From Lachnospiraceae bacterium (lineage in GTDB: Bacteria; Bacillota; Clostridia; Lachnospirales; Lachnospiraceae): a DNA stretch of 38,878 nucleotides. Below are positions 942 to 33,849 of this stretch, piece after piece; positions within the stretch are counted from its first letter, which is position 1, and every line of letters starts with the position of its first letter. The DNA lies in NCBI GenBank assembly GCA_017440375.1, contig JAFSHK010000036.1, positions 1 through 38,878 of the forward strand, given 5' to 3'. The translations under genes were made by a program, and so were the position numbers. The notes beneath the pieces are model-generated. The model made no database searches. It worked only from the letters and a program-made list of their open reading frames with translations, and had not been told where the DNA came from.

Positions 942-951
942 AGAGAGTAAA

Positions 952-1644: not shown

Positions 1645-1656
1645 AGGGGAGTTACT

Positions 1657-2844: not shown

Positions 2845-2882
2845 GTTATTATGGCAGATAGATGATAGAAAGGAAGGATGAA

Positions 2883-3581
2883 ATGTTGACGAAGGAAACA
2901 GAGAAGCAACTAGATGTAGATTTATGGATTATCGTAATAGCTTCGTTATTAGCGCTTATGATTGTAATGATAGGTAATGATTGGATTTATTCCATTGCGG
3001 AGAATACGTCAATTAACGTTGTTTTGCGTGTTTTCTGGATGGGACTGTTTCAATTTGGTGTTGCAGGTTTGGGTATTACGATTGTGGCCATTATACGAAA
3101 AGAAAGCTTTCTTAGTCACGGTCTGAGATTAAAGGGTATTATACCGGCTGTTTTACTTAGCGTTGTATGTTGCCTGCCGGATTTTATTTATAATTTTGCA
3201 GCGGGAAATGTGCATACATGGTGTCCGTTTTATGATGTAAACTCAACAAGAGAAGTATTGGCGAGCGGTTTTCCGTATAATGTGCTTGGGATGCTTATTA
3301 CGGCTGTTTGCTGGGGGTTTTTTGAAGGTTTTAATTATGTTTTTATCAGCGATAAGATAAATGCAAGGTATCCATCAAAGAATAAGTTCCTAAATTGGGG
3401 AGCGATTGTATGTGCGGTTATGTGCATTTTGATACATGGTGCAGTAGGAGTCACGCCTGATGCAATTATCGAAATGCTTTGCACAATGTTTCTGATTTAT
3501 GGAATGTTGATGGTCAGAGATAAAACGGGAAATGCGTGGGGCTGTGTTTTGATATTTGTTGTATATTGGAATGCGCTTTAA
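2883..3581 (+). CDS. CPBP-like polytopic membrane protein
   Basis: A 232-residue protein with six or more hydrophobic segments. The start at 2883 is preferred because AGGAAGG (2871-2877) lies just upstream; an in-frame ATG at 2862 lacks a ribosome site. The C-terminal half resembles CPBP/Abi (CAAX protease and bacteriocin-processing) proteins: FFEGFNYVFIS near residue 150 sits where EExxxR is expected, an intramembrane His follows in ILIHGAVG, and a final helix ends WNAL. The second Glu and the Arg of the EExxxR motif are missing, so catalytic activity is doubtful. As last gene of the TetR/ABC operon it may serve in immunity or membrane stress. Family assignment is moderate. Confidence 0.6.
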   Translation: MLTKETEKQLDVDLWIIVIASLLALMIVMIGNDWIYSIAENTSINVVLRVFWMGLFQFGVAGLGITIVAIIRKESFLSHGLRLKGIIPAVLLSVVCCLPDFIYNFAAGNVHTWCPFYDVNSTREVLASGFPYNVLGMLITAVCWGFFEGFNYVFISDKINARYPSKNKFLNWGAIVCAVMCILIHGAVGVTPDAIIEMLCTMFLIYGMLMVRDKTGNAWGCVLIFVVYWNAL

Positions 3582-3595
3582 TATGTTTAGTATAG

Positions 3596-3638
3596 AAGAG
3601 TTGTGATGCGAAAAATGTACACAACTCTTTTCTTTTTT
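3596..3638 (+). terminator. Rho-independent terminator
   Basis: A 10-bp perfect stem AAGAGTTGTG/CACAACTCTT with a 14-base loop runs into a T-rich tail (3628-3638). It closes the TetR/ABC operon. Confidence 0.88.
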
Positions 3639-3709
3639 CTATATAGGCTTTTTCGGAAAACTATGATAACATTAACTTGAATTATTATGAATTGAGAGAT
3701 GATTACAAG

Positions 3710-4891: not shown

Positions 4892-4930
4892 AAGGATGAA
4901 ATCAAAAATAGGTTAAACGGATAGATTAGA

Positions 4931-6490
4931 ATGGGAAAATTGGGAATCGAGCAAACAGGAACGGAACAAACAAGAGAAGGACAGTCTGGGCTGGAAGATG
5001 CACTTAGAAATTATGGTAAGAGTGATTTTTATCCTTATCATATGCCGGGACATAAGCGCAGTCAGAAGATGGGCGCATGGTCCGATATTTTTCAAATAGA
5101 TATAACAGAAATTGATGGTTTCGACAATCTGCATCAGGCAGAAGGTATGATTAAGCAGGCGCAGGAGAGGGCAGCAAAGCTCTATGGCGCGGAGGAAACC
5201 TTTTTCTTGGTAAACGGAAGTACTTGTGGAGTGTTGTCAGCGATTTTGTCGGTAACCCAGAAGCAGGATACGATTTTGATTGCAAGAAATTGTCACAAAT
5301 CGGTTTATCATGCGGCTTTTTTGCAGGAGTTACAGTTGCGTTATCTTTATCCGGAACAGATTGCCGAATACGGAATTGCAGACGCAATTGGTCCGGAAGA
5401 GGTAGAAGAAGCCTTGATAAAGTATCCGGAATGTAAGGCGGTTGTCATTACATCGCCGACCTATGAGGGTATTATAGCCGATATTCGTAGTATTGCACAG
5501 GTGGTACATAAATACGAGAAGGTTTTGATTGTAGATGAAGCGCATGGCGCACATCTGGGAATGGCAGACAATATGCCATCTAACGCAGCAAAATTAGGAG
5601 CGGATTTAGTGATTAACAGTCTGCATAAAACGTTGCCTGCCATGACACAGACAGCTTTATTGCATGTAAATGGTAAGCGGGTCAACAGAAAAAAACTGCG
5701 CCGTTATTTGAGCATGCTACAGACAAGCAGTCCGTCTTATGTTTTTATGGCGAATATGGATTCCTGTATTTCTTATATGAAGGAAAATGCGGAAAGCTGT
5801 TTTGAAAAAATGCAGGGTTATCATTGTAAGCTTATGATGCGGATGAAAGCTTGTAAACATATCTGTGTGGGTAATACAGAGGTTATCTATAATAGAGGTT
5901 ATCACCTGATAGGCTGGGATATTGGGAAATTGGTTATTTCGGTGAAAAATACCAGTATGAGTGGACAGCGGCTTTATGATATTCTGCGGGATGAGTTTCA
6001 TTTGCAGATGGAAATGGCAGCAGACAGCTATGTGTTAGCGATGATGACCGCTATGGATGATGAAGAGGGCTGGCAGAGATTGGCTGATGCACTTTTACAG
6101 ATAGATGATAGGATAGAAGTTGGGGCAGAAGAATGCGAAGATTGTCGGGGGAATCTGAAATTGAGGGAAGCCCAAAGAATTGACATTCAAGAGATAGGGT
6201 GTCAAAAAGTAGAAACTCAAAATCCGACAGCTAAAATGACAATTGCAGAGGCTTTTGCAGCTTTATATGACGAGGAAGGCAGCTTGCAAGAGATTCCTTT
6301 TGCGCATGCAGAAGGAAAGATTGTGGGCGATTTTGTCAATTTATATCCTCCGGGAATTCCGATTCTTGTGCCGGGAGAAGTCATTGGTGCAAGAGAAATT
6401 CAGATGATACAGGAGAGTTTACGGATGGGGTTGCATGTGCAAGGGATATCCGAAACAGAAACTGTTATGATTTGTCGTAGAAAAAATTGA
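4931..6490 (+). CDS. Orn/Lys/Arg decarboxylase family protein (YaaO-like)
   Basis: A 519-residue PLP-dependent enzyme of the aminotransferase-fold decarboxylases for basic amino acids. The N-terminal motif YPYHMPGHK, the strand VLIVDEAHGAH, and NSLHKTLPAMTQ with the PLP Lys at residue 233 are diagnostic. The C-terminal domain contains the family block LYPPGIPILVPGEVI. It would make polyamine precursors (agmatine, cadaverine or putrescine) in the cytoplasm; the exact substrate cannot be read from sequence. It heads the conserved cluster running to rsmI, as yaaO does in Bacillus. The SD is weak. Confidence 0.88.
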   Translation: MGKLGIEQTGTEQTREGQSGLEDALRNYGKSDFYPYHMPGHKRSQKMGAWSDIFQIDITEIDGFDNLHQAEGMIKQAQERAAKLYGAEETFFLVNGSTCGVLSAILSVTQKQDTILIARNCHKSVYHAAFLQELQLRYLYPEQIAEYGIADAIGPEEVEEALIKYPECKAVVITSPTYEGIIADIRSIAQVVHKYEKVLIVDEAHGAHLGMADNMPSNAAKLGADLVINSLHKTLPAMTQTALLHVNGKRVNRKKLRRYLSMLQTSSPSYVFMANMDSCISYMKENAESCFEKMQGYHCKLMMRMKACKHICVGNTEVIYNRGYHLIGWDIGKLVISVKNTSMSGQRLYDILRDEFHLQMEMAADSYVLAMMTAMDDEEGWQRLADALLQIDDRIEVGAEECEDCRGNLKLREAQRIDIQEIGCQKVETQNPTAKMTIAEAFAALYDEEGSLQEIPFAHAEGKIVGDFVNLYPPGIPILVPGEVIGAREIQMIQESLRMGLHVQGISETETVMICRRKN

Positions 6491-6530
6491 AATTCCTATG
6501 AAAATATGGCATTATTAAAGGGAGAGAACT

Positions 6531-7118
6531 ATGGGTAAAATAGTATGTCTGATGGGGAGAAGTTCATCAGGAAAAGATACCATTTTCAAGAAGCTTCTGG
6601 AACAGAGAGATGTACCGCTTCAGAAAATCGTACCATATACAACCAGACCGATTCGAGACGGGGAGCAGAACGGAGTAGAATATTATTTTACGGATGAAGT
6701 AGGATATCAGGAGCTTCTGCGCGCCGGAAGTATCATTGAATCGAGAGCATATAATACCTGTTACGGTGTGTGGCGTTATTTTACGGTAGCAGATGAAAAC
6801 ATTGATTTGTCAACACAATCATATGTGTTAATCGGTACTTTGGAGGCGTATGCACATATTTGCAAATTCTATGGCAAGGAGCAGGTGCTACCTGTTATGA
6901 TTGAATTGGATGATGGGGTACGCTTGCAGCGGGCACTGGATAGAGAGAAAGCACAGGATAATCCGAAGTATGAGGAAATGTGCAGACGTTTTCTGGCGGA
7001 TGCAGAGGATTTTTCCATTGATAAAATGCAGGCAGCAGGGATTACACAGAGTTTTTACAATGATGATTTGGAGATTTGTCTTTCTAAAATTGTTACTTAC
7101 TTGAAGGATAATATATAA
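6531..7118 (+). CDS. Guanylate kinase-like nucleotide kinase
   Basis: A 195-residue P-loop kinase. GRSSSGKDT at residues 9-17 is the P-loop, and YTTRPIRDGEQNGVEYYF near 36-53 matches the guanylate kinase GMP-binding block. The family phosphorylates GMP or dGMP with ATP. In the P-loop the usual Ser/Thr or Gly after Lys is replaced by Asp, and similarity fades towards the C terminus, so strict GMP specificity is uncertain. It occupies the place held by tmk (thymidylate kinase) in the Bacillus yaaO-holB cluster. A GGGAGAG SD precedes the ATG. It may be a second guanylate kinase beside one elsewhere in the genome. Confidence 0.78.
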   Translation: MGKIVCLMGRSSSGKDTIFKKLLEQRDVPLQKIVPYTTRPIRDGEQNGVEYYFTDEVGYQELLRAGSIIESRAYNTCYGVWRYFTVADENIDLSTQSYVLIGTLEAYAHICKFYGKEQVLPVMIELDDGVRLQRALDREKAQDNPKYEEMCRRFLADAEDFSIDKMQAAGITQSFYNDDLEICLSKIVTYLKDNI

Positions 7119-7181
7119 TCATTTTGTATGAGACAGTAGTTTTTCAGAGGGGACAGGCGGAATTTTGCCGGGAGGATTCGC

Positions 7182-7622
7182 GTGGATATCAAAGTAAATC
7201 AAGTTAATCAGTCGATGCCGGTGGAGCAGACGCAACAAGTACAACAGGCAGACGGTTCTTTTAAATTTACATTAGTCAGCAGAATAGAGGAGCAGGATTT
7301 ACAGACTGCTTTGACGCATATGATGGAAGAAATCACCCGTCAAGGGGATAAGCTTGCCAAGCATCGTGATATTAAGGACATGAAGCGGTATCGGGCACTT
7401 ATCAAGGATTTCCTGAATGAGATTGTGAATCGTTCGCATGCGTTTTCCAGAGAAAATTTCCTGGATAGAAAAGGACGACATCGTGTGTACGGCATTATTC
7501 GTTTGATTGACCAGAATCTGGACGAGCTGGCACAGGAGCTTGTGAAGGATGAGCAGGATAACTTGGCAATTTTGAGTAAAATCGGGGAGATACGAGGACT
7601 GCTTCTGGATATCTTCACGTAA
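7182..7622 (+). CDS. yaaR: YaaR family protein (DUF327)
   Basis: A 146-residue soluble helical protein of unknown biochemical function, recognised by length, sequence ([10 protein letters not shown] start; [45 protein letters not shown]) and position immediately before holB as in Bacillus. The start codon is GTG at 7182, chosen because GGGAGG lies about ten bases upstream. It contains basic and acidic helices but no catalytic motif that can be recognised. It ends 13 bases before holB, so the two are probably co-transcribed. Confidence 0.82.
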
Positions 7623-7635
7623 CGGAGGTTTATAG

Positions 7636-8625
7636 ATGGCAAAATTTACAGACATTATCGGACAAGAACAATTGAAAGAGCATTTACAGAATGCAATTTC
7701 CATGAATAAAGTTTCACATGCTTATATTATCAATGGAGAGAGAAGCTCCGGCAAGGAATTCATTGCCAAAGTTTTTGCGGCTGCTTTGCAGTGTGAAAAG
7801 AAAGAGGTAGAGCCTTGTGGGGAATGTCACTCCTGTAAGCAGGCACTTAGTGGCAATCAGCCGGATATTATTTATGTTTCGCATGAGAAACCGAATACAA
7901 TCGGTGTTGAGGATATTCGCGGGCAGATTAACAATGATATTGTGATTAAGCCATACAGCAGCCCCAGAAAAGTTTATATTATGAACGAAGGGGAGAAAAT
8001 GACAATACAGGCGCAGAATGCCCTTTTAAAGACTTTGGAGGAGCCGCCGGAGTATGCTGTTATTTTGATTCTGACAACAAATGTAGAAGCACTTTTACCG
8101 ACTATTTTAAGTCGGTGTGTTGTGCTGAATATGAAACCGGTATCCGATGAAAAAGTGAAAAAATATCTGATGGAAGAGTTGCAGGTTCCGGATTACAAGG
8201 CAAATATCTGTGTGGCCTTTGCAAGAGGAAATATTGGTAAGGCAAAGTTGCTTGCATCCAGCGAGGAATTTGAGAAGGTAAAAGAGGAAGCAATTTCACT
8301 GGTGAAAAATATTAATGATATGGAAATCAATGAAATTGTGAAAGCAATTAAAAAAATATCAGAGTATAAATTTGATGTTGGCGATTATTTGGACATTTTG
8401 TCAGTATGGTATCGAGATGTGCTGTTATTCAAGGCAACGAAAGATGCTAATAGTCTGATTTTCAAAGACGAATTACAGGCGATTCGTAAAGTGGCAGACA
8501 GAAGTACCTATGAAGGAATTGAAATAATTGTCAAAGCATTGCAGCAGGCGAAGAGACGACTGGAAGCCAATGTTAATTTTGATTTGACAATGGAGCTGCT
8601 GCTTCTGACTATTCAGGAGAATTAA
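7636..8625 (+). CDS. holB: DNA polymerase III subunit delta'
   Basis: A 329-residue AAA+ clamp-loader subunit. The N-terminal domain opens with FTDIIGQEQLKEHLQNAI. A P-loop-like GERSSGKEF (about 35-43) lacks the usual Ser/Thr, fitting a subunit that need not hydrolyse ATP. A zinc module with four Cys follows (CEKKEVEPCGECHSC). NALLKTLEEPPEYAVILILTT and SRC (sensor 1/arginine-finger region) are clear clamp-loader blocks. It acts with DnaX and delta to load the sliding clamp. SD GGAGG precedes the ATG, and it sits in the expected order between yaaR and yaaT. Confidence 0.93.
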   Translation: MAKFTDIIGQEQLKEHLQNAISMNKVSHAYIINGERSSGKEFIAKVFAAALQCEKKEVEPCGECHSCKQALSGNQPDIIYVSHEKPNTIGVEDIRGQINNDIVIKPYSSPRKVYIMNEGEKMTIQAQNALLKTLEEPPEYAVILILTTNVEALLPTILSRCVVLNMKPVSDEKVKKYLMEELQVPDYKANICVAFARGNIGKAKLLASSEEFEKVKEEAISLVKNINDMEINEIVKAIKKISEYKFDVGDYLDILSVWYRDVLLFKATKDANSLIFKDELQAIRKVADRSTYEGIEIIVKALQQAKRRLEANVNFDLTMELLLLTIQEN

Positions 8626-8667
8626 ATAAGGAATTACCTATGAAAAATTTTAAAATATAGGTTAGAA

Positions 8668-8686
8668 CCCCGCAAGGGGATGGAGG
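8668..8686 (+). promoter_or_regulatory. GNRA hairpin directly before yaaT ribosome site
   Basis: CCCC-GCAA-GGGG (8668-8679) forms a short GC-rich hairpin with a GCAA tetraloop, immediately followed by the Shine-Dalgarno GGAGG (8682-8686) and the ATG at 8697. It could position or partly mask the ribosome site. The effect is inferred. Confidence 0.45.
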
Positions 8687-8696
8687 TTGATAGATT

Positions 8697-9620
8697 ATGA
8701 TAAGAGTAATAGGAGTACGTTTCCGTACTGCGGGAAAAATATATTATTTTGATCCGGGTAAGCTGGATATTAAGAAAGGAGCTCATGTTATCGTAGAAAC
8801 GGCCAGAGGTATTGAGTATGGCACGGTAGTGGGAGAGCCGAGAGAAGTAACCGATGATAAAGTTGTACAGCCGCTTAAGGCGGTGCTTCGTGTAGCAACA
8901 CAGAAGGATGATGAACAGGAAGCAGCGAATAAAGAGAAAGAAAGAGAAGCTTTCAAAATTTGTCTGGAGAAAATCAGAAAACATGAATTACAGATGAAAC
9001 TGATTGATGCAGAGTATACGTTTGACAATAATAAGGTTCTTTTCTATTTTACAGCGGATGGACGTATTGATTTCCGCGAATTGGTAAAAGATTTAGCAGC
9101 GGTATTTAAGACGAGAATTGAACTTCGCCAGATTGGTGTTCGTGATGAGACGAAGATAGTAGGCGGTATTGGTATTTGCGGAAGACCACTTTGCTGTCAT
9201 ACGCATTTATCCGAATTTGTTCCGGTGTCTATTAAGATGGCAAAAGAACAGAATTTATCCTTAAATCCGACGAAGATTTCCGGTGTTTGCGGCAGATTGA
9301 TGTGTTGTCTGAAACATGAGGAAGAAACCTATGAGGATTTGAACAGAAAATTGCCGAATGTAGGTGATTTTGTAACAACAGAAGACGGACTCAAGGGTGA
9401 GGTGCAGAGTGTTAACGTACTTCGCCAGTTGGTAAAAGTTATCGTAGATATTAATGATGAAAAAGAAATTCAGGAATACAAGGTAGACCAGCTTCGTTTC
9501 AAGAGAAAACACAATAAGAATCACAAAATGGATGTGAACGATGAAGAATTGAAAGCGCTTGAGAAGCTGGAAAAACAAGAGAAACAGGAAGGAAACAAAT
9601 CCAAGCTGGATGATAATTAA
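8697..9620 (+). CDS. yaaT: YaaT, PSP1 domain (RicT) protein
   Basis: A 307-residue PSP1 C-terminal domain protein. The conserved Cys-rich blocks GICGRPLCCHTHL and GVCGRLMCCLKHE, with SIKMAKEQNLSLNPTKISG between them, are diagnostic. In Bacillus the YaaT/RicT protein forms a complex with YlbF and YmcA that carries iron-sulfur clusters and affects RNase Y-dependent mRNA maturation, sporulation and biofilm formation; the Cys here fit cluster binding. The C terminus is highly charged (EELKALEKLEKQEKQE) and probably disordered. It lies 71 bases after holB and 13 before the methyltransferase gene. Confidence 0.9.
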   Translation: MIRVIGVRFRTAGKIYYFDPGKLDIKKGAHVIVETARGIEYGTVVGEPREVTDDKVVQPLKAVLRVATQKDDEQEAANKEKEREAFKICLEKIRKHELQMKLIDAEYTFDNNKVLFYFTADGRIDFRELVKDLAAVFKTRIELRQIGVRDETKIVGGIGICGRPLCCHTHLSEFVPVSIKMAKEQNLSLNPTKISGVCGRLMCCLKHEEETYEDLNRKLPNVGDFVTTEDGLKGEVQSVNVLRQLVKVIVDINDEKEIQEYKVDQLRFKRKHNKNHKMDVNDEELKALEKLEKQEKQEGNKSKLDDN

Positions 9621-9633
9621 AGGGTAGAAGAGG

Positions 9634-10383
9634 ATGGAAGCTGATAGAAAAGTTGTGCTGAAAGAGAATGAAAGAGTTGATGATTTACAGCGCAACGGCT
9701 ATCAGATTATTCAGAATCCGGAGAAGTTCTGCTTCGGTATGGATGCGGTTTTGCTTTCTGGTTTTGCCAGAGCGAAGGAAGGAAGTTATGTGCTTGATAT
9801 GGGCACCGGAACAGGCATTATTCCTATTTTGATGGAAGCTAAGACGAAAGCAGCTCATTTGACCGGACTCGAAATTCAGGAAGAAAGTGCGGACATGGCA
9901 AGGCGTAGTGTGTCTTTGAATGGATTAGAGGGGAAAATCTCGATTGTAACGGGAGATATTAAAGAAGCAGGCAGCCTTTTTCGCGCTGCTTCTTTTGATG
10001 TTATTACCTGTAATCCGCCCTATATGATAGGTCAGCATGGAATTACGAATCCGGGAGATGCCAAAGCCATTGCACGGCATGAAATTCTGTGTACGTTAGA
10101 AGATGTTGTTTCACAGGCGGCGAAGTTATTAAAGCCGGGCGGGAACTTTTTCATGGTACACAGACCGTTTCGTTTGGCAGAAATTATGGTGCTTCTGCAT
10201 CAATATAAGTTAGAGCCGAAACGTATGCAGATGGTATATCCTTTTGTCGACAAAGAGCCGAATATGGTGTTGATTGAGGCAAATCGAGGCGGCAAGCCAC
10301 GTATGACAGTAGAAAAACCACTGATTATTTATCAAGAGCCGGGCGTTTATATGCCGGAGATTTATGATATTTATGGATATTAG
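9634..10383 (+). CDS. TrmN6-like methyltransferase (YabB family)
   Basis: A 249-residue SAM-dependent methyltransferase. Motif I is LDMGTGTGIIPIL (about residues 48-60), and the NPPY catalytic motif of N6-adenine methylases appears as ITCNPPYM near residue 129. The family includes TrmN6, which methylates A37 of tRNA1(Val). The opening block ERVDDLQRNGYQIIQNPEKFCFG, followed by the aspartate in GMDAVLL, is typical. It follows yaaT as yabB does in Bacillus, where YabA usually lies between them and is missing here. The target tRNA is inferred from family only. Confidence 0.85.
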   Translation: MEADRKVVLKENERVDDLQRNGYQIIQNPEKFCFGMDAVLLSGFARAKEGSYVLDMGTGTGIIPILMEAKTKAAHLTGLEIQEESADMARRSVSLNGLEGKISIVTGDIKEAGSLFRAASFDVITCNPPYMIGQHGITNPGDAKAIARHEILCTLEDVVSQAAKLLKPGGNFFMVHRPFRLAEIMVLLHQYKLEPKRMQMVYPFVDKEPNMVLIEANRGGKPRMTVEKPLIIYQEPGVYMPEIYDIYGY

Positions 10384-10426
10384 ACATAAGAGAGCTGCTT
10401 GAAGCAATAGAATAAAGGAGTATAAA

Positions 10427-11269
10427 ATGGCAGGAACATTATACCTGTGTGCGACACCGATAGGAAATCTGGGAGATATGACACCCCGTGTTATAGAGAC
10501 TCTGAGAGAGGTTGATATAATTGCGGCAGAAGATACAAGAAATAGTATTAAGCTGCTTAATCATTTTGAAATAAAGACTTCTATGACGAGTTATCATGAA
10601 TATAATAAAATAGAAAAAGCGGACTACCTTGTGGAGCAGATGATGCAGGGCAAAAATATTGCACTCATTACGGATGCCGGAACACCTGCAATTTCCGATC
10701 CGGGTGAGGTTCTGGTACAAAAGTGCCAGCAGGCAGGCATTACCGTTACGTCTTTGCCGGGAGCGGCGGCTTGTATTACAGCACTGACCTTGTCGGGGTT
10801 AAGTACCAGACGGTTTTGTTTTGAAGGTTTTCTGCCTTCCGATAAAAAAGAAAAAGCAGTGGTGCTGAAGGATTTGAAAGAAGAATCCAGAACAATGATT
10901 TTATACGAGGCGCCACATCATCTTGTGCGTACCTTGACAGAATTATATGAAACAGTAGGAAACCGGAGGATTACTTTGTGCAGGGAGTTGACCAAGAAGT
11001 TTGAGACGATTATGCCAACGACTTTGGAGGATGCGCTTGCATATTATGAGAAAGAAGCGCCTCGCGGAGAATATGTTTTGGTGATAGAAGGCAAAAGCCA
11101 TCAGGAGAAACAAGAGGAAGAACAAAAGCAGTGGCAGGCAATGTCTATCGAAGAACATATGGCCTATTATGAAAAGGAGGGGATGGACCAAAAAAGTGCC
11201 ATGAAGCAGGTTGCAAAGGACCGAGGAGTGACAAAAAGAGATATTTATCAATATTTATTACAGAAGTGA
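10427..11269 (+). CDS. rsmI: 16S rRNA 2'-O-ribose C1402 methyltransferase
   Basis: A 280-residue tetrapyrrole-methylase-fold enzyme that methylates the ribose of C1402 in 16S rRNA using SAM. The diagnostic opening LYLCATPIGNLGDMTPR, the AAEDTRNS block, LITDAGTPAISDPGE and SLPGAAACITALTLSGL are all present. The C-terminal extension ends with a helical KSAMKQVAKDRGVTKRDIYQ segment usual in the family. AAAGGAG precedes the ATG. It ends the yaaO-type cluster; the GIY-YIG gene yazA that often precedes it is absent. Confidence 0.95.
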   Translation: MAGTLYLCATPIGNLGDMTPRVIETLREVDIIAAEDTRNSIKLLNHFEIKTSMTSYHEYNKIEKADYLVEQMMQGKNIALITDAGTPAISDPGEVLVQKCQQAGITVTSLPGAAACITALTLSGLSTRRFCFEGFLPSDKKEKAVVLKDLKEESRTMILYEAPHHLVRTLTELYETVGNRRITLCRELTKKFETIMPTTLEDALAYYEKEAPRGEYVLVIEGKSHQEKQEEEQKQWQAMSIEEHMAYYEKEGMDQKSAMKQVAKDRGVTKRDIYQYLLQK

Positions 11270-11270
11270 A

Positions 11271-11298
11271 TTGACAAAACGATTAAAAACCGTAAAAT
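11271..11298 (+). promoter_or_regulatory. Possible upstream promoter of acpP
   Basis: TTGACA at 11271-11276, a 16-base spacer and TAAAAT at 11293-11298, directly after the rsmI stop. It is weaker than the promoter at 11303-11331, and would make a tandem pair. Confidence 0.4.
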
Positions 11299-11302
11299 AA
11301 GA

Positions 11303-11331
11303 TTGACAAATAGTATATCTAATAATATACT
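11303..11331 (+). promoter_or_regulatory. Strong SigA-type promoter of acpP-fabK
   Basis: TTGACA (11303-11308), a 17-base spacer and TATACT (11326-11331) form a near-consensus promoter. The -10 box overlaps the left edge of the palindromic operator at 11329-11346, so a bound repressor would block RNA polymerase. Confidence 0.82.
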
Positions 11332-11346
11332 TTGAATGTCAAACTA
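11329..11346 (+). promoter_or_regulatory. FabT-like operator upstream of acpP
   Basis: ACTTTGAATGTCAAACTA, with core TTTGA-ATG-TCAAA (11331-11343), overlaps the -10 and start region of the acpP promoter. The same 18 bases recur upstream of fabD at 12741-12758 and nowhere else noticed in the window. The form resembles the palindrome of MarR-family FabT, which represses fatty acid synthesis genes in related Firmicutes. No regulator gene for it is in the window. Confidence 0.7.
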
Positions 11347-11374
11347 ATTTTGAGATTAAAAAGGAGATAAGAAA

Positions 11375-11608
11375 ATGTTAGAGAGAGTGAAAGAAATTAT
11401 TCAGGAACAGTTAAACTTAGATGGTGTTGAAATTACAGAGGAATCTTCCTTCAAAGATGATTTAGGAGCAGATTCTTTAGATTTATTTGAGTTAGTTATG
11501 GCTTTTGAAGAAGAATATGGTATTGAAATTCCTTCAGAAGATTTAGAGCAGATTACAACAGTAGGTGCTGTTATTGAATATATGAAAAGCAAAGGTGTAG
11601 AAGCTTAA
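11375..11608 (+). CDS. acpP: Acyl carrier protein
   Basis: A 77-residue acidic carrier protein that shuttles growing acyl chains between the Fab enzymes. The phosphopantetheine attachment motif [12 protein letters not shown] places the modified Ser at residue 34. Length and the four-helix pattern are normal. AAAAAGGAG is the ribosome site. It is the first gene of the fatty acid locus, with a strong promoter and a putative repressor site, and fabK follows after 55 bases. Confidence 0.96.
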
Positions 11609-11663
11609 TTAATGTGAAAAATCCATAATTGGAAGTTTCTCACAAGGGAATGGGTTAAAGTAT

Positions 11664-24470: not shown

Positions 24471-24943
24471 ATAAAGAGTGGAATATACTTTTTGGCCAGT
24501 GTGGTTACTGCTGTGTGGGATAAAGTATCTATTATGTCTCAGTGGAGTTTTTCATGGGATTTCTTTGTGTACTCGTTTATCATTTGTTTACCGGAGCGAC
24601 GGGTGAAGAAAGTGGCTGGCATGGATTTTTATTTCCATATCTGATGGAAAAGTATGGGTGTATTAAAAGCAGTATTTATGTGGGAATCATATGGGGACTA
24701 TGGCATATTCCGTTGTGCTTAATTTCCGGATACACAGGAATAGATTTGCTCTTTTATATTGTTCAGTTTATGATTTGTACGATAGCATGGTCCATAGTGA
24801 TGGACATACTTTATTTTTGGAATCGAAATCTTCTGATTGTGACAACATTTCATTTTATGGTAAATTTCCTGCTTTCTTTCTTCCATGGAAATGACCTGGT
24901 ATTTCAAGACAGCCTATGTAAATTGCACAAAATGAATGCATAA
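24471..24943 (+). pseudogene. Frameshifted CPBP family gene
   Basis: The second half (from about 24590) reads as a CPBP protein: TGATGEESGWHGFLFPYLM, with the EE motif, then GIIWGLWHIPLCLISGY and the last motif HFMVNFL. The matching upstream part (YFLASVVTAVWDKVSIMSQ) is in another frame, so a frameshift lies around 24585-24600. A perfect AAGGAGG (24457-24463) precedes ATA at 24471, which could be a mutated start codon. The N-terminal helices are also missing. An internal ATG at 24542 would give only a truncated 133-residue product. I call it a decayed paralogue of the genes at 23392 and 25100. Confidence 0.7.
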
Positions 24944-25099: not shown

Positions 25100-25780
25100 T
25101 TAAGTAAAAACATTTAGCCATACTGTAATTAATGCATCATACACACCATGTGCAATAATAAGTGACAACAGCGTGCAATTCTTGATTTTGACCCTACAGA
25201 TGCACAAGATAGCTCCAATTATACCGGTTACAATCAATTGTATTATATTTCCGCCCAAGAAGTGAAACAATCCAAACAGAATCGAAGAACCCACGATTGC
25301 ACCTGTAGAAGAACCAAAGAGTGTTTCCATCTTTGTATAGAAGAATCCACGGAATACAAATTCCTCCCCCAGCGCAATTGCAAAAATATAATAAACAAAA
25401 TCGTATATGAATTGCCACATATATTGATATTGATGTTGATTATTAACCCAGTCACTTTTTCCTGCCAGATGCGGTATTACCGTAAAAACAAATGACATAC
25501 ACAACGCAATAACAAGGCCAATCACCACCTGATATCCAATCTTTTCTTTTGAGAAACCATAGTCGGACCATTTATCCTTATTAAATATTGCGATACACAA
25601 AGGGACTATTGCAATCGATAAATGTGTCACGATCATTCCAACCATACGCCAAACAAGCGGAATGTTCATAAGCACATATTGGTTAAATGCATTAAGTCCC
25701 AATACCCCTACAATTGCACTGATTATTGCTATTACAATCTGTATTATTATTTTTTTACATTCTTTCACTTTCATCTTCAT
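25100..25780 (-). CDS. CPBP family intramembrane protease-like protein
   Basis: A 226-residue polytopic membrane protein on the minus strand. Motifs are intact: GEEFVFRGFFY near residue 140, His in FGLFHFLGG, and the last motif in IIAHGVYDAL. It has about seven hydrophobic segments. Its start overlaps the end of the upstream HTH/zinc-ribbon gene by 26 bases, so the pair is probably one transcript. As with the plus-strand CPBP at 23392, it is coupled to an HTH-membrane protein. Confidence 0.87.
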   Translation of the reverse strand: MKMKVKECKKIIIQIVIAIISAIVGVLGLNAFNQYVLMNIPLVWRMVGMIVTHLSIAIVPLCIAIFNKDKWSDYGFSKEKIGYQVVIGLVIALCMSFVFTVIPHLAGKSDWVNNQHQYQYMWQFIYDFVYYIFAIALGEEFVFRGFFYTKMETLFGSSTGAIVGSSILFGLFHFLGGNIIQLIVTGIIGAILCICRVKIKNCTLLSLIIAHGVYDALITVWLNVFT

Positions 25781-27984: not shown

Positions 27985-28034
27985 GCTGTTATTATTGGAA
28001 AAGAAATTGCATATATTAGAAACAAGATGAAGTG

Positions 28035-28073
28035 AAAAAAAGCATGCATATGATTTTCATAGGCATGTTTTTT
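28035..28073 (+). terminator. Intrinsic terminator immediately before spmA
   Basis: CATGCATATGA (28043-28053) pairs with TCATAGGCATG (28057-28067) with one A-G mismatch and a 3-base loop. An A run before and six T after (28068-28073) complete it. It ends the membrane protein transcript 12 bases before the likely spmA start codon, so spmA either starts inside or depends on read-through. It also argues against an upstream in-frame GTG (28032) as the spmA start. Confidence 0.85.
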
Positions 28074-28085
28074 ATTTATGGGACT

Positions 28086-28670
28086 ATGTTAAATTATATC
28101 TGGGCTTTTATGATTATTATCGGAATTATTTACGGGGCATTTACCGGAAATATGGAAGAAGTGTCGAAGGCGGCACTGGATTCCGCGGGAGAAGCCGTAT
28201 CATTGTGTATTACGATGATAGGAGTTATGTCGTTGTGGGTTGGGCTGATGGAAATTGCACAGAAATCAGGACTGATTGGAAAAATGACCAAGGGAATTTC
28301 ACCCTTTATTAGTTTCATGTTTCCGAATATTCCAAAGAAGCATCCGGCAAGAGAATACATATCTACCAATCTGATTGCAAATGTGCTGGGGCTTGGCTGG
28401 GCATGTACACCCGCAGGGCTTAAAGCAATGGAAGAACTTTCCCATCTGGAAAAAGAACGGGGAAATCCGAACGGCGAGCACAGAGCTTCGAAAGAGATGT
28501 GCGATTTTCTTATTTTGAATATTTCTTCCTTACAGCTTATTCCGGTCAATATGATTGCATATAGGCAGCAATACGGCAGTGTCAATCCTACCAGTATTAT
28601 TGCACCGGCAATTGTTGCGACGTTTATCAGTACGTTTGTGGCGGTGATTTTTTGTAAGTGGAAGAAATAG
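28086..28670 (+). CDS. spmA: Spore maturation protein A
   Basis: A 194-residue membrane protein of the nucleoside-recognition (Gate) domain family. It contains GIIYGAFTGNMEEVSKAAL, SLWVGLMEIAQKSGLI, the PNIPKKHPAREYISTNLIANVLGLGWACTPAGLKAM region and the closing TSIIAPAIVATFIS block, matching Bacillus SpmA (196 residues). SpmA and SpmB act in the forespore to lower core water and raise heat resistance. ATG 28086 is chosen over GTG 28032 because it gives family length and lies after the terminator; the ribosome site is weak. spmB, normally the next gene, lies 6 kb away. Confidence 0.88.
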   Translation: MLNYIWAFMIIIGIIYGAFTGNMEEVSKAALDSAGEAVSLCITMIGVMSLWVGLMEIAQKSGLIGKMTKGISPFISFMFPNIPKKHPAREYISTNLIANVLGLGWACTPAGLKAMEELSHLEKERGNPNGEHRASKEMCDFLILNISSLQLIPVNMIAYRQQYGSVNPTSIIAPAIVATFISTFVAVIFCKWKK

Positions 28671-28677: not shown

Positions 28678-28706
28678 TTGACTTTATATAAATAAAATAA
28701 TACAAT
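28678..28706 (+). promoter_or_regulatory. SigA-type promoter of recombinase-like gene
   Basis: TTGACT (28678-28683), a 17-base spacer and TACAAT (28701-28706) begin eight bases after the spmA stop and 37 bases before the next start codon. The downstream pair therefore has its own vegetative promoter, unlike the sporulation gene it follows. Confidence 0.75.
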
Positions 28707-28742: not shown

Positions 28743-29759
28743 ATGGATATTATGGAGAAATGTAGAGATGATTATTTTAGAGATTGCGAATATATGCTTA
28801 ACAATAAACCTTCTTATGTGAGTCATGTAAATAAATTCATAGCATATTTAAAAATAATGGATTTGGCGGATAGACCCAAAGCCATTGATAGAAATATTGT
28901 GGATGCATGTATAGGATATTATAGAAATGAGAAAAAGGAACTAAATGCCCGTGCAACAATGGAGGCACATTTAGAAGCACTTAAAAGTTTTTATGATTAT
29001 CTGGGCAGAGAGGGAAAAGCTGAAGATATTTTTCCTGATTATGATTATCAGGATTTTAAAGAAAAAATGGTAAAAAAATATGAGTTACTAGAGCCTGTGG
29101 AAAGAGGTTCTTTTGAATGCGAAGAAGTTATTGAAATATTAAAAAATCTTGATCAGTCAATAGGAGAATTTTCATATGAAGAATCAGGTATACGAGATGA
29201 AGAACGGTATTTGCAACGAATAATTCTAAGAATATTTGTAAAAATTACTTTAATTGCACCAGCAAAAAGAAATGTGATTACCCGAATTAAAAATAAAGAT
29301 TTCGAGGATAGTTATAAGAAATTAAATGTTAATAGCGTAAAAGTAAATATACCAAGTGGACTTTCTAGAGATATTATTAATGCAATAAGATATGCAGAAG
29401 AAAAAAATAGTGTCGAGATAGAGGATGATGATGAATTATTTGAATTTATATATCGATATAAGGGTAATTTTAGGGGAGAGTCATTAAATACTTGGTTTAA
29501 TAATGTTATAAAAGATTTTAATATTTTTAATGGTGAAGCAGGGAAAAAAACATATCCTGTTGAACCTATAAGAAATACAGCGATTCAAATGATGGCAGAT
29601 AATATGGTAAATCCAGTATTTATTTCGAAAATTACTGGAATTACATTTTCCAGTATAGAAGCACAATATTACAAATCACAGAATTCGCAGTATGAGGAAT
29701 ATATTAATAGAAATATTAATAGGGCAATTGCACAAAATGATTACTATTACTATATATAG
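28743..29759 (+). CDS. Divergent tyrosine recombinase-like protein
   Basis: A 338-residue protein with an N-terminal SAM-like DNA-binding region (about 20-110) and a C-terminal tyrosine-recombinase catalytic fold. Aligned by spacing with XerD (R148, K172, H244, R247, H270, Y279), it keeps Arg176, Lys200, Arg277 and Tyr309. Glu274 and Ile300 stand at the two His positions. R-to-R spacing is 101 against 99, and R-to-Y is 32 in both. So it may be a slow or altered recombinase, or a DNA-binding derivative. The gene is AT-rich (15 G+C of 60 at 29281-29340) unlike its flanks. It precedes a DUF1016 nuclease gene. Confidence 0.72.
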   Translation: MDIMEKCRDDYFRDCEYMLNNKPSYVSHVNKFIAYLKIMDLADRPKAIDRNIVDACIGYYRNEKKELNARATMEAHLEALKSFYDYLGREGKAEDIFPDYDYQDFKEKMVKKYELLEPVERGSFECEEVIEILKNLDQSIGEFSYEESGIRDEERYLQRIILRIFVKITLIAPAKRNVITRIKNKDFEDSYKKLNVNSVKVNIPSGLSRDIINAIRYAEEKNSVEIEDDDELFEFIYRYKGNFRGESLNTWFNNVIKDFNIFNGEAGKKTYPVEPIRNTAIQMMADNMVNPVFISKITGITFSSIEAQYYKSQNSQYEEYINRNINRAIAQNDYYYYI

Positions 29760-29815
29760 TAGCATTTGGGAATTTAAATGTAAAAGTACTTTAAAAGTAT
29801 AGAAGACAGTGAATC

Positions 29816-29833
29816 GGCTACACGTGTGTAGCC
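29816..29833. repeat. Perfect inverted repeat before DUF1016 gene
   Basis: GGCTACAC/GTGTAGCC with a 2-base centre lies 10 bases before the ribosome site of the next gene. There is no T run, so it is not an intrinsic terminator. It could be a DNA site for the neighbouring recombinase-like protein, an operator, or an RNA hairpin affecting translation. A near repeat TAAAAGTA is seen twice just upstream (29781-29799). Confidence 0.55.
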
Positions 29834-29851
29834 AATTTGCTTGGGGGATTT

Positions 29852-30925
29852 ATGAATCATAAAAACGAATTAAAGGAAAACGCCATAGATGAAATTACTT
29901 TAGTAGAAGAGCGACAATTTTACGAAGATGTACGTTTAATATTAAAGAGTGCAAAAGAACAAGCATATAATAATGCCAGTGCTATTATGACAGAAGCATA
30001 TTGGAATGTGGGAGCAAGAATTGTTGAGCAGGAACAACGAGGACAGAAGAAAGCGAGATATGGTACATATTTAATAAAAAATTTATCGAAGGAATTATCG
30101 GATGAGTTTGGAACGGGATTTTCAATTGCCAATCTAAAAAATTGCAGACAGTTCTATTTAACATTTCCTAAAAATTCATATGGCTTTACCATGTCGAGGA
30201 AAGTGCCATGGTCTCACTTGAGAAGTATTATGCGTATTGCGAATGAAGAGGAACGAGATTTTTATTTAAATGAAGTAGTAAGTGAGAATTGGTCAGTAAG
30301 AACTTTAGAGCGTAATATTAAAAGTGGCTACTACAAAAGAAAATTATCTACACAGTTGACGGATAAAGATAATAAAGTATTGGAATTTGTAAAGGATCCT
30401 TTTGTTTTAGAATTTATGGGGATTAAGCAAGATGATGAACACAGAGAAAGCGATATTGAAAAGGCTATTATCAGTAATTTGCAGAAATTTTTGTTAGAAA
30501 TGGGAAAAGGATTTTCTTTTGTTGGGAAGCAAATGAGGATATGTACAGAAACAACAGATTTTTATATTGATTTAGTTTTTTATAATTTTATATTAAAATG
30601 TTTTGTATTAATTGATTTAAAAACAACGAAGTTGACACATCAAGATATTGGTCAAATGGATATGTATGTTAGAATGTTTGACGATTTAAAGCGTAGAGAA
30701 GATGATAATCCAACAATAGGAATTATTTTTTGTACAGATAAGGATGAAACTATGGTCAAGTATTCTGTACTAAATGAAAATCAACAAATATTTGCCTCAA
30801 AGTATATGACAGTATTACCAACGGTGGAGGAATTGCAGAGAGAATTGGAACGAAATCAATTAGTTTATGATGTTAAGGATATATGTTCTCATAACTTACC
30901 AAAATATAATAGTAAGTTTCCTTGA
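29852..30925 (+). CDS. DUF1016/YhcG-family PD-(D/E)XK nuclease
   Basis: A 357-residue protein. The N-terminal DUF1016 domain includes AYWNVGARIVEQEQRGQKKA, then LSKELSDEFGTGFS, LKNCRQFYLTFP, VPWSHLRSIM and the ENWSVRTLERNI block. The C-terminal PD-(D/E)XK nuclease has Asp240 (YIDLVFYN) and Asp255-x-Lys257 (VLIDLKTTKL), then a conserved GQMDMYVRMFDD helix. The family is found near restriction-modification and other mobile or defence loci, but its function is not well defined. ATG 29852 has GGGGGA upstream; an in-frame TTG lies at 29837. The gene is AT-rich and follows the recombinase-like gene. Confidence 0.88.
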   Translation: MNHKNELKENAIDEITLVEERQFYEDVRLILKSAKEQAYNNASAIMTEAYWNVGARIVEQEQRGQKKARYGTYLIKNLSKELSDEFGTGFSIANLKNCRQFYLTFPKNSYGFTMSRKVPWSHLRSIMRIANEEERDFYLNEVVSENWSVRTLERNIKSGYYKRKLSTQLTDKDNKVLEFVKDPFVLEFMGIKQDDEHRESDIEKAIISNLQKFLLEMGKGFSFVGKQMRICTETTDFYIDLVFYNFILKCFVLIDLKTTKLTHQDIGQMDMYVRMFDDLKRREDDNPTIGIIFCTDKDETMVKYSVLNENQQIFASKYMTVLPTVEELQRELERNQLVYDVKDICSHNLPKYNSKFP

Positions 30926-31002: not shown

Positions 31003-31014
31003 GGAGAGATGCTT

Positions 31015-33849
31015 ATGATACGAATGGAAGTAATGTGCTTTCTAATCTTATTTTTTATTGCCACAATGTTTTTTTCGGCGAAAAGAGTAAAATCGAAGAT
31101 ACATAATACTTTTTCATTGTTATTAGTTACTGCAATCATAAATATTATTCTGGATATCATAACGGTTTATATTGTTTATAATATAGACTCGGTACCGATT
31201 TTATATACTAATATTATACATCGATTATTTTTTATCACGATGGAAATAGTTTTCTTTTTGATATATCGATATATCATAATGTTGGTAGAGGATGAATCGC
31301 ATGACCATATTAAGGTATCCTGTTTTAGTACAATAATTCTGGCAATCTTTTTAATATGTTTGTGTATATTGCCGATTTATTATGCCGAAACAGTAAATGG
31401 TTGTTATTCGTATGGTCCCTCAACGGACGTTTTACATTTCAGTTGTGCAATCTATATTATAATGTTTGCGATTACGTTGATAAAACACAGGAAATGTATT
31501 CATTTCAAAAAAAGATTTTCCATTTGTATAGCGCTTGGAATTGAGTTAATCGTATCGTTTTATCAATTAGCCAGACCGTGGTCACTGATAAGTGGTATGG
31601 GAATTACGCTTATTGTGTTTGCACTGTATATGACGTTGGAAAGCCCGGACAGTTTGTTAATAGAACAGCTTCGTGAAGAGAAGGTTAAGGTGGAGAAAGC
31701 AACGCGGGCAAAATCGTCGTTTGTATCAAATATGTCACACGAAATACGAACACCGATGAATGCCATTGTTGGTATGACAGACATTCTGCTCCGGAGTGAA
31801 CTTACAACACAACAAAAAGGGTATTTATACAATATCAAAAATTCCGGTAACGCGTTATTGGCAATTATCAATGATATTTTGGATTTTTCTAAAATAGAAT
31901 CCGGAAAAATGGAGCTTGTTGAAGATAATTACGAACCAATGTCTATGTTAAGTGATTTGGGTATGATTATCTTGAATCGTATTGGTGAGAAGCCAATTGA
32001 GCTTATTTTTGATATTGACAAGGAATTACCAAGAAAATTATATGGTGATGTCAATCGTGTCAGACAGATTATTATTAATTTGATGAATAATGCAGCGAAA
32101 TTCACGGAAGAAGGATATGTACAACTGACAATTCGTGTAAAATGGTTGTCGGAGCAGGAGGTTGAATTATTTGTCAGCGTAAAAGATAGTGGACAGGGTA
32201 TTCGAGAGGAAGACCTAGTTAAGCTGTTCGGTGCATTTCAACAGGTAGATGCCAAGAAGAATCGTAACAAAGAAGGAACGGGTCTTGGACTTGCTATTTG
32301 TAGCCAGTTAGTAGATCTTATGGGTGGTTCCATTGATGTGAAAAGTGAATATGGAACGGGCAGTGAATTTTATTTTACAATTAAGCAGAAAGTTGTAGAA
32401 AAACGTGCTGCAGCGGAGTTAAAGATAGGAGAAGGAAGAAAAGAGCTTCCTGCTATTAGTGGATTATTCCAGAGTCGATATATTCTTGAAAATGTGAAGC
32501 AGCTGGCAGAAGAATATGGCTGTACCTTTATGCAAGAGGATGATATTGATTGGAAGGGAGAAAATGGAACGAGTGTTTATCCCGATTATTTCGTTGTCGA
32601 TGAAATAATTTATGAAAGTTGTACGGAGCTTCTTGCCAAGATGCAGGAAAAAGGTGTTACAATCTGTATTTTACAAAATCCTATGCGCTATAATTTTCAT
32701 AATGTGAATGCAAAAGTGTTGAATAAGCCTTTATATAGTTTGGGATTTTGCCGATTATTAAATCATGAGGAGTTAATAGTAGAAGATACAGAGAAGAAGC
32801 AAAATTATTTTACTGCGCCGGAGGCCAAGATTCTGATTGTCGATGATAACGAAATGAATTTGAAAGTAGCAGTCGGATTGTTAGAGCCGTTGAAGATGAA
32901 GATTGATACAGCAGAAAGCGGTATGCGTGCAATTGAGATGATTCAGGAAAAGAAACATTATCATGCGGTCTTTATGGATCATATGATGCCGGTTATGGAT
33001 GGCGTAGAAACGACTAGAAGAATTCGAAGTATATTAGGTGAATATTATCGTAATCTTCCTATCATAGCATTAACGGCCAATGTTTTGACGGATGCACAGG
33101 AAGAGTTTAGAGAAGCCGGTATGAATGATTTCGTGGCGAAACCGATAGAATTTCAGAAGATGTGTGAAGTTCTTCGAAAATGGCTACCGGAGCAATTGCT
33201 TCAGGAATTAAATTCTGCCGAAATTGCCATGCGGGTACAGGCGGAACAGGACACGCAGGAGGATTTACCATCGATAGAGGGTATTGACATTGCTGAAGGC
33301 ATTAAAAATTCCGGCAGCAAAGAATTATTTGTCAGCTTGTTGGGAGATTTTTATAAATTAATTGATATGAAGTCTTCTAAAATGAAAAAATGTTTGGCAG
33401 ATGGGTTACTTAGGGATTATACTATTGAAGTACATGCTTTGAAAAATACAGCCAGAATGATTGGGGCTATGAAACTATCTGAATGGTGTTATCGTCTGGA
33501 GCAGATGGGAAATGTAGAGAATAAGGAGATTCTGGAAGAAGAGACTCCGGGTATGTTGGAGTTGTATCAAAGCTATAAAGCTGTTTTGAAGCCTTATGGG
33601 TTAGCGCAGGAGCAGGAAAAGAGAGAAGCTTCGATAGAAGAAATGGTTGCGCTTTTGACTACCATAAAAGAGGCGACTGATAATTTTGATTTGGATGCAG
33701 TTGATGATACAAGTAAGGAACTGGAAAAGTGTCAGCTTCCGCAGGATTGTATTCCTCTAATGGAGGAGCTTCGTGCCTATGTAGCAGATGTGGCTATGGA
33801 AGACATTTTGACAACCGTCGATAAGATGCTTCAAATTGTACAAAAATAG
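31015..33849 (+). CDS. Hybrid histidine kinase, 7-TM, REC and Hpt
   Basis: A 944-residue phosphorelay kinase. Seven hydrophobic helices occupy residues 1-205. A HisKA domain carries His242 (NMSHEIRTPMNAIVGMTD), followed by the ATPase domain (NLMNNAAKFTEEG; DSGQGI; GTGLGLAIC). An irregular domain with no receiver aspartate follows (about 470-590), then a receiver with Asp655 (AVFMDHMMPVMDG), then a C-terminal Hpt helix with His807 (EVHALKNTA). GGAG at 31003-31006 favours ATG 31015 over 31009. It would pass phosphate to the regulator encoded next. The ligand is unknown. Confidence 0.88.
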   Translation: MIRMEVMCFLILFFIATMFFSAKRVKSKIHNTFSLLLVTAIINIILDIITVYIVYNIDSVPILYTNIIHRLFFITMEIVFFLIYRYIIMLVEDESHDHIKVSCFSTIILAIFLICLCILPIYYAETVNGCYSYGPSTDVLHFSCAIYIIMFAITLIKHRKCIHFKKRFSICIALGIELIVSFYQLARPWSLISGMGITLIVFALYMTLESPDSLLIEQLREEKVKVEKATRAKSSFVSNMSHEIRTPMNAIVGMTDILLRSELTTQQKGYLYNIKNSGNALLAIINDILDFSKIESGKMELVEDNYEPMSMLSDLGMIILNRIGEKPIELIFDIDKELPRKLYGDVNRVRQIIINLMNNAAKFTEEGYVQLTIRVKWLSEQEVELFVSVKDSGQGIREEDLVKLFGAFQQVDAKKNRNKEGTGLGLAICSQLVDLMGGSIDVKSEYGTGSEFYFTIKQKVVEKRAAAELKIGEGRKELPAISGLFQSRYILENVKQLAEEYGCTFMQEDDIDWKGENGTSVYPDYFVVDEIIYESCTELLAKMQEKGVTICILQNPMRYNFHNVNAKVLNKPLYSLGFCRLLNHEELIVEDTEKKQNYFTAPEAKILIVDDNEMNLKVAVGLLEPLKMKIDTAESGMRAIEMIQEKKHYHAVFMDHMMPVMDGVETTRRIRSILGEYYRNLPIIALTANVLTDAQEEFREAGMNDFVAKPIEFQKMCEVLRKWLPEQLLQELNSAEIAMRVQAEQDTQEDLPSIEGIDIAEGIKNSGSKELFVSLLGDFYKLIDMKSSKMKKCLADGLLRDYTIEVHALKNTARMIGAMKLSEWCYRLEQMGNVENKEILEEETPGMLELYQSYKAVLKPYGLAQEQEKREASIEEMVALLTTIKEATDNFDLDAVDDTSKELEKCQLPQDCIPLMEELRAYVADVAMEDILTTVDKMLQIVQK

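What the first reader, a model, noticed from the sequence alone, without database searches (positions are those of the whole stretch)
28743..30925. Divergent recombinase paired with a DUF1016 nuclease: candidate defence or mobile module
Two AT-rich genes form a compact unit with one promoter and an inverted repeat between them (29816-29833). The first aligns by spacing with XerD at every catalytic position but keeps only Arg176, Lys200, Arg277 and Tyr309; Glu274 and Ile300 replace the two His. The second is a PD-(D/E)XK nuclease with Asp240 and Asp255-x-Lys257 intact. DUF1016 proteins occur near defence and mobile loci and lack a settled role. A fixed pair would be a new system.
Basis: partly seen in the sequence, partly recalled or inferred. 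Interest (0 to 1): 0.7.

Follow-up and report, generated by a model that had tools for sequence, protein, structure and literature searches.

The report
Recombinase-like gene with exchangeable DNA-enzyme partner
A gene that looks like a DNA recombinase with an altered active site sits in front of a DNA-cutting enzyme; relatives pair it with four different kinds of DNA enzyme, often inside small mobile gene cassettes, so it may be a control protein rather than half of one fixed new system.

Summary
Both genes are real and the residues are as described. ORF1 (28743-29759) is a remote tyrosine-recombinase relative; ORF2 (29852-30925) is a DUF1016/YhcG nuclease. The 'fixed pair' reading fails: in 33 relatives at an spmA-like gene the next gene is AAA-PDDEXK_9 (24), SLFN_AlbA_2 (5), type IIG restriction-modification (2), DUF1016 (1, the window) or unreadable (1). 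A distant clade, mostly beside tsf, has DUF1016 in 5 of 5 readable loci, from another DUF1016 branch. The inverted repeat goes with DUF1016. Across 37 sequences Glu274 is invariant and the second Arg is Lys or Met in 25; Tyr309 is lost in the tsf clade; the window itself keeps both Arg and the Tyr. Relatives of the unit lie in tandem cassette arrays with large-serine-recombinase-type ends; seven genomes with that end motif show no ORF1, so ORF1 is probably not the mover. Best reading: ORF1 is a repurposed, probably non-recombining DNA-binding controller of an exchangeable DNA enzyme (precedent: phage SPbeta MrpR). No function was tested.

The parts
28032..28670 (+). spmA-like gene (name recalled), the gene whose 3' part carries cassette arrays in relatives; codon 126 starts at 28407
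   Evidence: Pfam Gate only at E 0.016, under its cut-off; no NCBIfam match at E 0.001
28678..28706 (+). promoter-like pair before ORF1 (TTGACT, 17 nt, TACAAT)
   Evidence: consensus match only; the region is not enriched over shuffles
28743..29759 (+). ORF1, divergent tyrosine-recombinase relative (338 aa)
29816..29833 (.). inverted repeat GGCTACAC-GT-GTGTAGCC in the DUF1016 leader
   Evidence: same dyad before DUF1016 genes without ORF1; terminator-like by pattern
29843..29848 (+). ribosome-binding-site-like GGGGGA before ATG 29852
   Evidence: sequence
29852..30925 (+). ORF2, DUF1016/YhcG PD-(D/E)XK nuclease (open from TTG 29837)
30901..30925 (.). right junction: last DUF1016 codons and stop lie in DNA that aligns with the spmA-to-kinase spacer of the empty-site relative
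31009..33849 (+). hybrid histidine kinase, the right flank; its relative directly follows the spmA-like gene in L125, which has no ORF1

Best explanation
ORF1 is a repurposed tyrosine-recombinase-fold protein that probably binds DNA without recombining it. It is the first gene of a two-gene unit whose second gene is an exchangeable DNA-acting enzyme: AAA-PDDEXK_9, SLFN_AlbA_2, type IIG restriction-modification, or, in the window, DUF1016. Shown: partner exchange; departure from the canonical catalytic set across the family; purifying selection on relatives; relatives inside cassette arrays at the spmA-like gene whose ends match large-serine-recombinase insertions. Inferred: ORF1 represses or licenses its partner, much as MrpR represses phage SPbeta; the partner cuts foreign DNA; the window copy is a cassette that has lost its right end.
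For: Partner exchange: 24/5/2/1 plus 1 unreadable among 33 loci; at least 5 partner changes on the ORF1 tree, 'no such partner' counted as a state. Same strand, about 20-35 nt before AAA-PDDEXK_9 and AlbA_2. The two DUF1016 partners come from distant branches: the window's with L172, L173 and L192 (SH-aLRT 99), the tsf clade's with L197 (99). Residues: E for His in 37 of 37; second Arg is Lys in 20 and Met in 5 of 37; position 300 Leu or Ile in 36 of 37; Tyr309 absent in 4 of 4 tsf-clade sequences. dN/dS 0.05-0.15 for ORF1 (9 pairs), 0.05-0.09 for AAA-PDDEXK_9 (3 pairs), 0.07 and 0.02 for ORF1 and DUF1016 of one tsf pair. Mobility: ORF1+AAA 98.6% identical in L057 and L060 while their 5' spmA parts are 66.0%. 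ORF1 not needed at the site: none found in 7 genomes with the end motif; serine recombinases sit at the same point in L133. Empty site: L125, in whose genome no ORF1 was found. Precedent: MrpR (PMC10516654, passages).
Against: The window's own ORF1 keeps R176, R277 and Y309; only the two His are replaced, so activity of this copy cannot be excluded. No DNA-binding, repression or nuclease test exists here. No sequence similarity to MrpR (E 0.065), and the PDB search found no recombinase at all. No operator of ORF1 was found. The dyad before DUF1016 may be a terminator. Six 'other' relatives, one on a viral contig, have none of these partners (five readable, one at a contig end). The window has neither the end motif nor a spmA relic, so its arrival as a cassette is inferred; the sign of a hybrid spmA gene is weak. 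Selection was not measured on the window copy. The seven genomes without ORF1 are 84-99% complete.
Confidence: 0.45

Rival explanations
1. ORF1 is still a working, unusual tyrosine recombinase that inserts or excises its own cassette at the spmA-like gene, and the nuclease is cargo.
For: A spmA segment ends within 300 bp upstream of ORF1 in 23 of 30 readable loci, the usual place of an integrase beside its attachment site. Tyr309 is kept in 28 of 28 spmA-clade and 5 of 5 'other' sequences, and the window keeps both Arg. The ORF1 cassette has moved between genomes.
Against: His to Glu in 37 of 37; second Arg to Lys or Met in 25 of 37; no Tyr in 4 of 4 tsf-clade sequences. Seven genomes carry the end motif with no ORF1 found. 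The ends match serine-recombinase elements. In the two longest arrays, L057 and L058, 3 of 4 units have no ORF1.
Confidence: 0.25
2. ORF1 and DUF1016 are chance neighbours: two unrelated genes at a hotspot for defence genes, with no shared function.
For: DUF1016 is common (84 of 200 family genomes) and has its own dyad without ORF1. The spmA-like gene is a hotspot. The window's DUF1016 is 80% identical to a gene without ORF1 nearby.
Against: DUF1016 follows ORF1 in two clades from different DUF1016 branches. All 37 readable next genes in the two clades are one of four DNA-enzyme types. Strands agree and most spacers are short.
Confidence: 0.25
3. ORF1 and DUF1016 form a fixed, dedicated two-gene defence system.
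For: The tsf clade keeps the pair in 5 of 5 readable loci, with low dN/dS in one pair.
Against: 1 of 32 readable at the spmA-like gene; the two DUF1016s are not sisters; in L050, L053 and L054 one or both genes of the tsf-clade pair are broken or short.
Confidence: 0.05

Closest known systems
MrpR (YopR), master repressor of Bacillus phage SPbeta
   Same: Tyrosine-recombinase-like protein that keeps the Tyr but has lost most catalytic residues; MrpR was shown to be a DNA-binding repressor without recombinase activity (PMC10516654, abstract and passages)
   Different: No detectable sequence similarity; MrpR has Asn at the first His, ORF1 has Glu; MrpR controls a prophage, ORF1 sits before a DNA enzyme
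YopP, annotated site-specific integrase of SPbeta
   Same: Profile-profile match over 244 columns, E 2.3e-6; SPbeta YopP also has Lys where the second Arg belongs, its phi3T relative has Arg
   Different: YopP keeps His268 where ORF1 has invariant Glu274; its next gene is annotated hypothetical
XerC/XerD and phage integrases
   Same: N-terminal core-binding domain similarity
   Different: Canonical catalytic set not kept across the family; the XerD model matches only residues 20-95
DUF1016/YhcG nuclease, PADLOC candidate PDC-S02
   Same: Full-length match, both Pfam domains, PD-(D/E)XK residues
   Different: In 29 other DUF1016 loci of the family no ORF1 lies in the flanks held, up to about 1.5 kb on each side
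Tandem accretion of integrative elements at one gene, such as SCC elements at rlmH (recalled)
   Same: Successive units share one attachment gene, whose 3' end is repeated between units
   Different: Small units (about 1.5-5 kb in the arrays seen), target is the spmA-like gene, serine-recombinase-type ends, many units without a recombinase gene

Membership tests
Tyrosine recombinases (Xer/integrase) | sequence kinship over the core-binding and catalytic domains | tested here: met
   hhalign to YopP E 2.3e-6 over 244 columns; PHROG integrase E 9e-4; weak or absent in other tests
Tyrosine recombinases (Xer/integrase) | catalytic set Arg, Lys, His, Arg, His/Trp, Tyr | tested here: not met
   E274 in 37 of 37; second Arg kept in 12 of 37 (window included); position 300 Leu or Ile in 36 of 37; K200 Lys in 9 of 37; Tyr309 in 33 of 37 (window included)
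Tyrosine recombinases (Xer/integrase) | DNA strand exchange | not testable with these tools
   no bench work
MrpR-type repressors | sequence homology to MrpR | tested here: not met
   hhalign E 0.065, 34 columns
MrpR-type repressors | recombinase fold with lost catalysis and DNA-binding repression | not testable with these tools
DUF1016/YhcG nucleases | DUF1016_N and YhcG_C domains over the curated cut-offs | tested here: met
   147 and 196.9 bits against 32.8 and 32.5
DUF1016/YhcG nucleases | PD-(D/E)XK residues present | tested here: met
   D240, D255-x-K257 counted from ATG 29852
PADLOC defence candidate PDC-S02 | match to its models | tested here: met
   E 1.2e-130; a candidate family, defence not shown here
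spmA-site cassette with serine-recombinase-type end | end motif TTCGTGTCAYTAACTTGACACAAG at the right end | tested here: not met
   0 matches in the window with up to 3 mismatches; one weak match (2 mismatches) on another contig of the own genome; found in 16 of 27 relatives with a readable right end (up to 4 mismatches, within 1.3 kb)
spmA-site cassette with serine-recombinase-type end | ORF1 directly after the spmA-like gene and absent from the empty site | tested here: met
   window against L125; no ORF1 found in that genome, G766, 89% complete

The most novel reading that the evidence does not exclude
ORF1 is the constant controller of a modular anti-invader unit: a tyrosine-recombinase fold turned into a DNA sensor or repressor, joined in a mobile cassette to any of several unrelated DNA-attacking enzymes, and twice independently to DUF1016.
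Probability: 0.3. Interest if true: 0.75.

Novelty: new variant of a known kind. Interest (0 to 1): 0.5.

Why it matters
If the controller reading holds, it would widen the MrpR precedent (recombinase fold reused for control) from a phage repressor to a family that governs exchangeable DNA enzymes, and give the poorly understood DUF1016 nuclease two testable handles: its dyad and its partner. The cassette arrays at the spmA-like gene in Lachnospiraceae would also be a compact store of defence-type genes whose exchange can be followed between genomes.

Tried and rejected
Fixed ORF1-DUF1016 pair: rejected for the family. Dyad 29816-29833 as ORF1's operator: rejected, since it precedes DUF1016 genes without ORF1. 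ORF1 as integrase of the arrays: disfavoured, not excluded. Homology to MrpR: not detectable. Hybrid spmA gene in the window: weak; identity to L125 is 85.5% before and 75.6% after codon 127, breakpoint at codon 127.7, 54 of 2000 permutations reach it, but 153 pairs of single-copy spmA-like genes differ by 3.9 points on average (sd 4.2, maximum 14.1). Strict co-travel of spmA 3' ends with their cargo: not seen. ORF1 relatives: none in plasmids or phages, one viral contig, 2 of 348 phylum genomes (own included), no relevant PDB chain. Canonical XerD model: no match in the window's own 68%-complete genome.

Literature: no paper on these arrays or this pairing appeared in the listings (10 to 20 rows listed each; several searches had more hits than were listed). 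I read passages of PMC10516654; of all other papers I saw listings only.

Limits and rows dropped: one search is seeded by short peptide patterns, so its 42 loci are not complete. One search counts broken copies (for example AlbA_2 in L015 and L016, AAA-PDDEXK_9 in L031, ORF1 in L042, L046, L050 and L054). L039 and L055 are contig ends of one strain and may be one locus; L031 and L042 lie in one genome. Not classified: L013, L014 and L168 (weak partial matches) and the genome search copies of loci already counted. Array loci were partly chosen by ORF1 or motif, so their counts are not rates. L053 was filed with the spmA set; one search recounts with it in the tsf clade. In one search L053 bore a wrong partner label (6 changes); corrected (5). 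The ORF1 tree has a long tsf branch and its program warns of long-branch joins. Dyads: the perfect-arm scan found one in 5 of 30 DUF1016 loci, 2 of them (L171 = the window, L172) of the window type; the imperfect-arm scan put 4 of 30 at no more than 1 of 60 shuffles. One search stopped with a script error after its alignment; one search repeated the comparison.

Full report
Observation. ORF1 is a remote tyrosine-recombinase relative: its N-terminal part resembles the integrase core-binding domain (Phage_int_SAM_1 E 0.0011, under cut-off; XerD model, residues 20-95), and a profile of 26 relatives matches the SPbeta integrase YopP over 244 columns (89%, E 2.3e-6). The same profile gave E 0.18 for the unrelated ORF2, 0.15 for one canonical-looking phage recombinase and 0.065 for MrpR. 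ORF2 is a DUF1016/YhcG nuclease, a family listed by PADLOC as defence candidate PDC-S02.

Who is next to ORF1? One pattern-seeded scan of one-per-species genomes gave 42 loci. With the window, larger pieces of two family members and one viral contig, 46 loci were classified. In the clade at an spmA-like gene (33 loci) the next gene is AAA-ATPase_like/PDDEXK_9 in 24, SLFN_AlbA_2 in 5, type IIG restriction-modification in 2, DUF1016 in 1 (the window), unreadable in 1; broken copies are counted. In a clade at about 30% identity, 5 of 7 loci directly after tsf, DUF1016 follows in 5 of 5 readable loci. Six further relatives have none of these partners (five readable, one at a contig end). The ORF1 tree needs at least 5 partner changes; shuffled labels need 15.1 on average, 12 at least (200 shuffles): partners are inherited for a while, then exchanged.

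Two separate meetings with DUF1016. In a tree of 33 DUF1016 proteins the window's copy joins L172, L173 and L192 (SH-aLRT 99), none with ORF1 nearby, and the tsf-clade copies join L197 far away (99). DUF1016 is common (84 of 200 family genomes), ORF1 rare (4 of 397, own included).

The inverted repeat. GCTACAC-n2-GTGTAGC also lies before DUF1016 in L172 and L173. A pattern scan with at most one mismatch and a spacer of up to 4 also found it in L189, about 80 nt before the assigned start and not above shuffles (14 of 60), and in L192, where its place relative to the start was not settled. In L172 the outer G:C pair of the window's arms is C:G, keeping the dyad. The tsf clade has its own 33-base dyad before DUF1016. 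So the repeat goes with DUF1016; whether it is an operator, a nuclease target or a terminator is open.

Residues and selection. In 37 distinct full-length sequences (28 spmA clade, 5 other, 4 tsf clade) Glu274 is invariant. The second Arg is Lys in 20 and Arg in 8 of 28, Met in 5 of 5, Arg in 4 of 4. Tyr309 is kept in 28 of 28 and 5 of 5 and is Leu in 4 of 4. The first Arg is kept in 33 of 37, Lys in 4. The window keeps both Arg and the Tyr. dN/dS is 0.05-0.15 for ORF1 in 9 pairs and 0.07 for a tsf pair without the Tyr; the window copy was not measured. The family is in use, but as a whole hardly as a standard recombinase.

Where the unit lives. In relatives the spmA-like gene is followed by tandem units: cargo, then TTCGTGTCAYTAACTTGACACAAG, then a copy of the gene's 3' part from codon about 126. 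The motif occurs in 18 of 23 genomes that hold ORF1-family loci and in 9 of 397 family genomes (some of those matches lie at other genes), the backward control in none. Among 72 non-redundant loci, partly chosen by the motif, 34 of 47 motifs are followed by the spmA core, in 26 loci, four with more than one. Cargo includes MNT and HEPN genes, HipA-like and HIRAN genes, an 884-codon gene with weak ATPase matches, and others. The 884-codon gene is 99.4% identical in L057, L058 and L121, in the third, third and first unit, while the 5' spmA parts of those hosts are 68-75% identical: the units move.

Who moves them. In L133 a 13-kb stretch with three large serine recombinases interrupts the spmA-like gene at the same point and ends in the same motif. 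In L139 a large serine recombinase ends in a close variant next to a gene that reads as enolase (recalled). Seven genomes with the motif (84-99% complete, five at 95% or more; six with the spmA core after it) show no ORF1. ORF1 is thus more likely cargo than mover.

The window. L125, the closest by its spmA-like gene among 41 genomes of the genus (87%), has that gene directly followed by the relative of the histidine kinase that lies right of the pair in the window. The window has no end motif and no second spmA piece, so either the right end decayed or the unit came another way; the mosaic test was inconclusive.

How it may work. SPbeta MrpR has a tyrosine-recombinase fold, 3 of 7 catalytic residues, no recombination activity, and represses by binding a repeated element; its authors expect more such cases (PMC10516654, passages). 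ORF1 would be a parallel case: first gene of a two-gene unit, probably controlling or guiding a DNA-damaging partner that can be exchanged. That ORF1 binds DNA, controls the partner, or defends the cell is inferred, not shown.

Verdict. A known kind of nuclease with an unusual partner. What is new is the exchange of partners behind a divergent recombinase, and the cassette arrays that carry the unit in relatives. Confidence in the mechanism is moderate at best.

Noticed in passing
L057, L058, L059, L060, L118, L121, L133 and others: Tandem cassette arrays at the 3' end of an spmA-like gene in Lachnospiraceae, with a shared 24-base end motif and defence-type cargo.
   Followed up: partly
L131 (G361:C3), 582-11613: The same layout at a gene that reads as recQ (name recalled): full gene, cargo, motif plus 3' part, cargo, motif plus 3' part; one cargo gene reads like a TIR protein (recalled).
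   Followed up: partly
L139 and L158 (G232:C1): Three recombinase-like genes in a row (one confirmed as a large serine recombinase by Pfam) ending in a variant of the motif beside the 3' part of a gene that reads as enolase (recalled); the left end was not reached.
   Followed up: partly
L023; relics in L020, L035, L047, L061: A second insertion point in the spmA-like gene near codon 176, with a large serine recombinase ending there in L023.
   Followed up: no
L172, L173, L176, L195, L199: Several DUF1016 leaders carry dyads: one shared sequence in the window's branch, other sequences elsewhere.
   Followed up: partly
L054 5344-5564 and 7882-8101; L053: Two members of the tsf clade lie away from tsf; L054 has a 221-base direct repeat around the unit.
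   Followed up: no
L046 6001-7020; L042: ORF1 copies broken by stops or frameshifts, in L046 with an open AAA-PDDEXK_9 gene behind it.
   Followed up: no
L167 (IMGVR_UViG_3300001041_000020): An ORF1 relative (39%) on a 71-kb viral contig without one of the four partners; the same contig holds a canonical-looking recombinase gene.
   Followed up: no
window 24542-24943 (+) and 25100-25780 (-): Two CAAX-protease-like (Rce1) genes on opposite strands.
   Followed up: no
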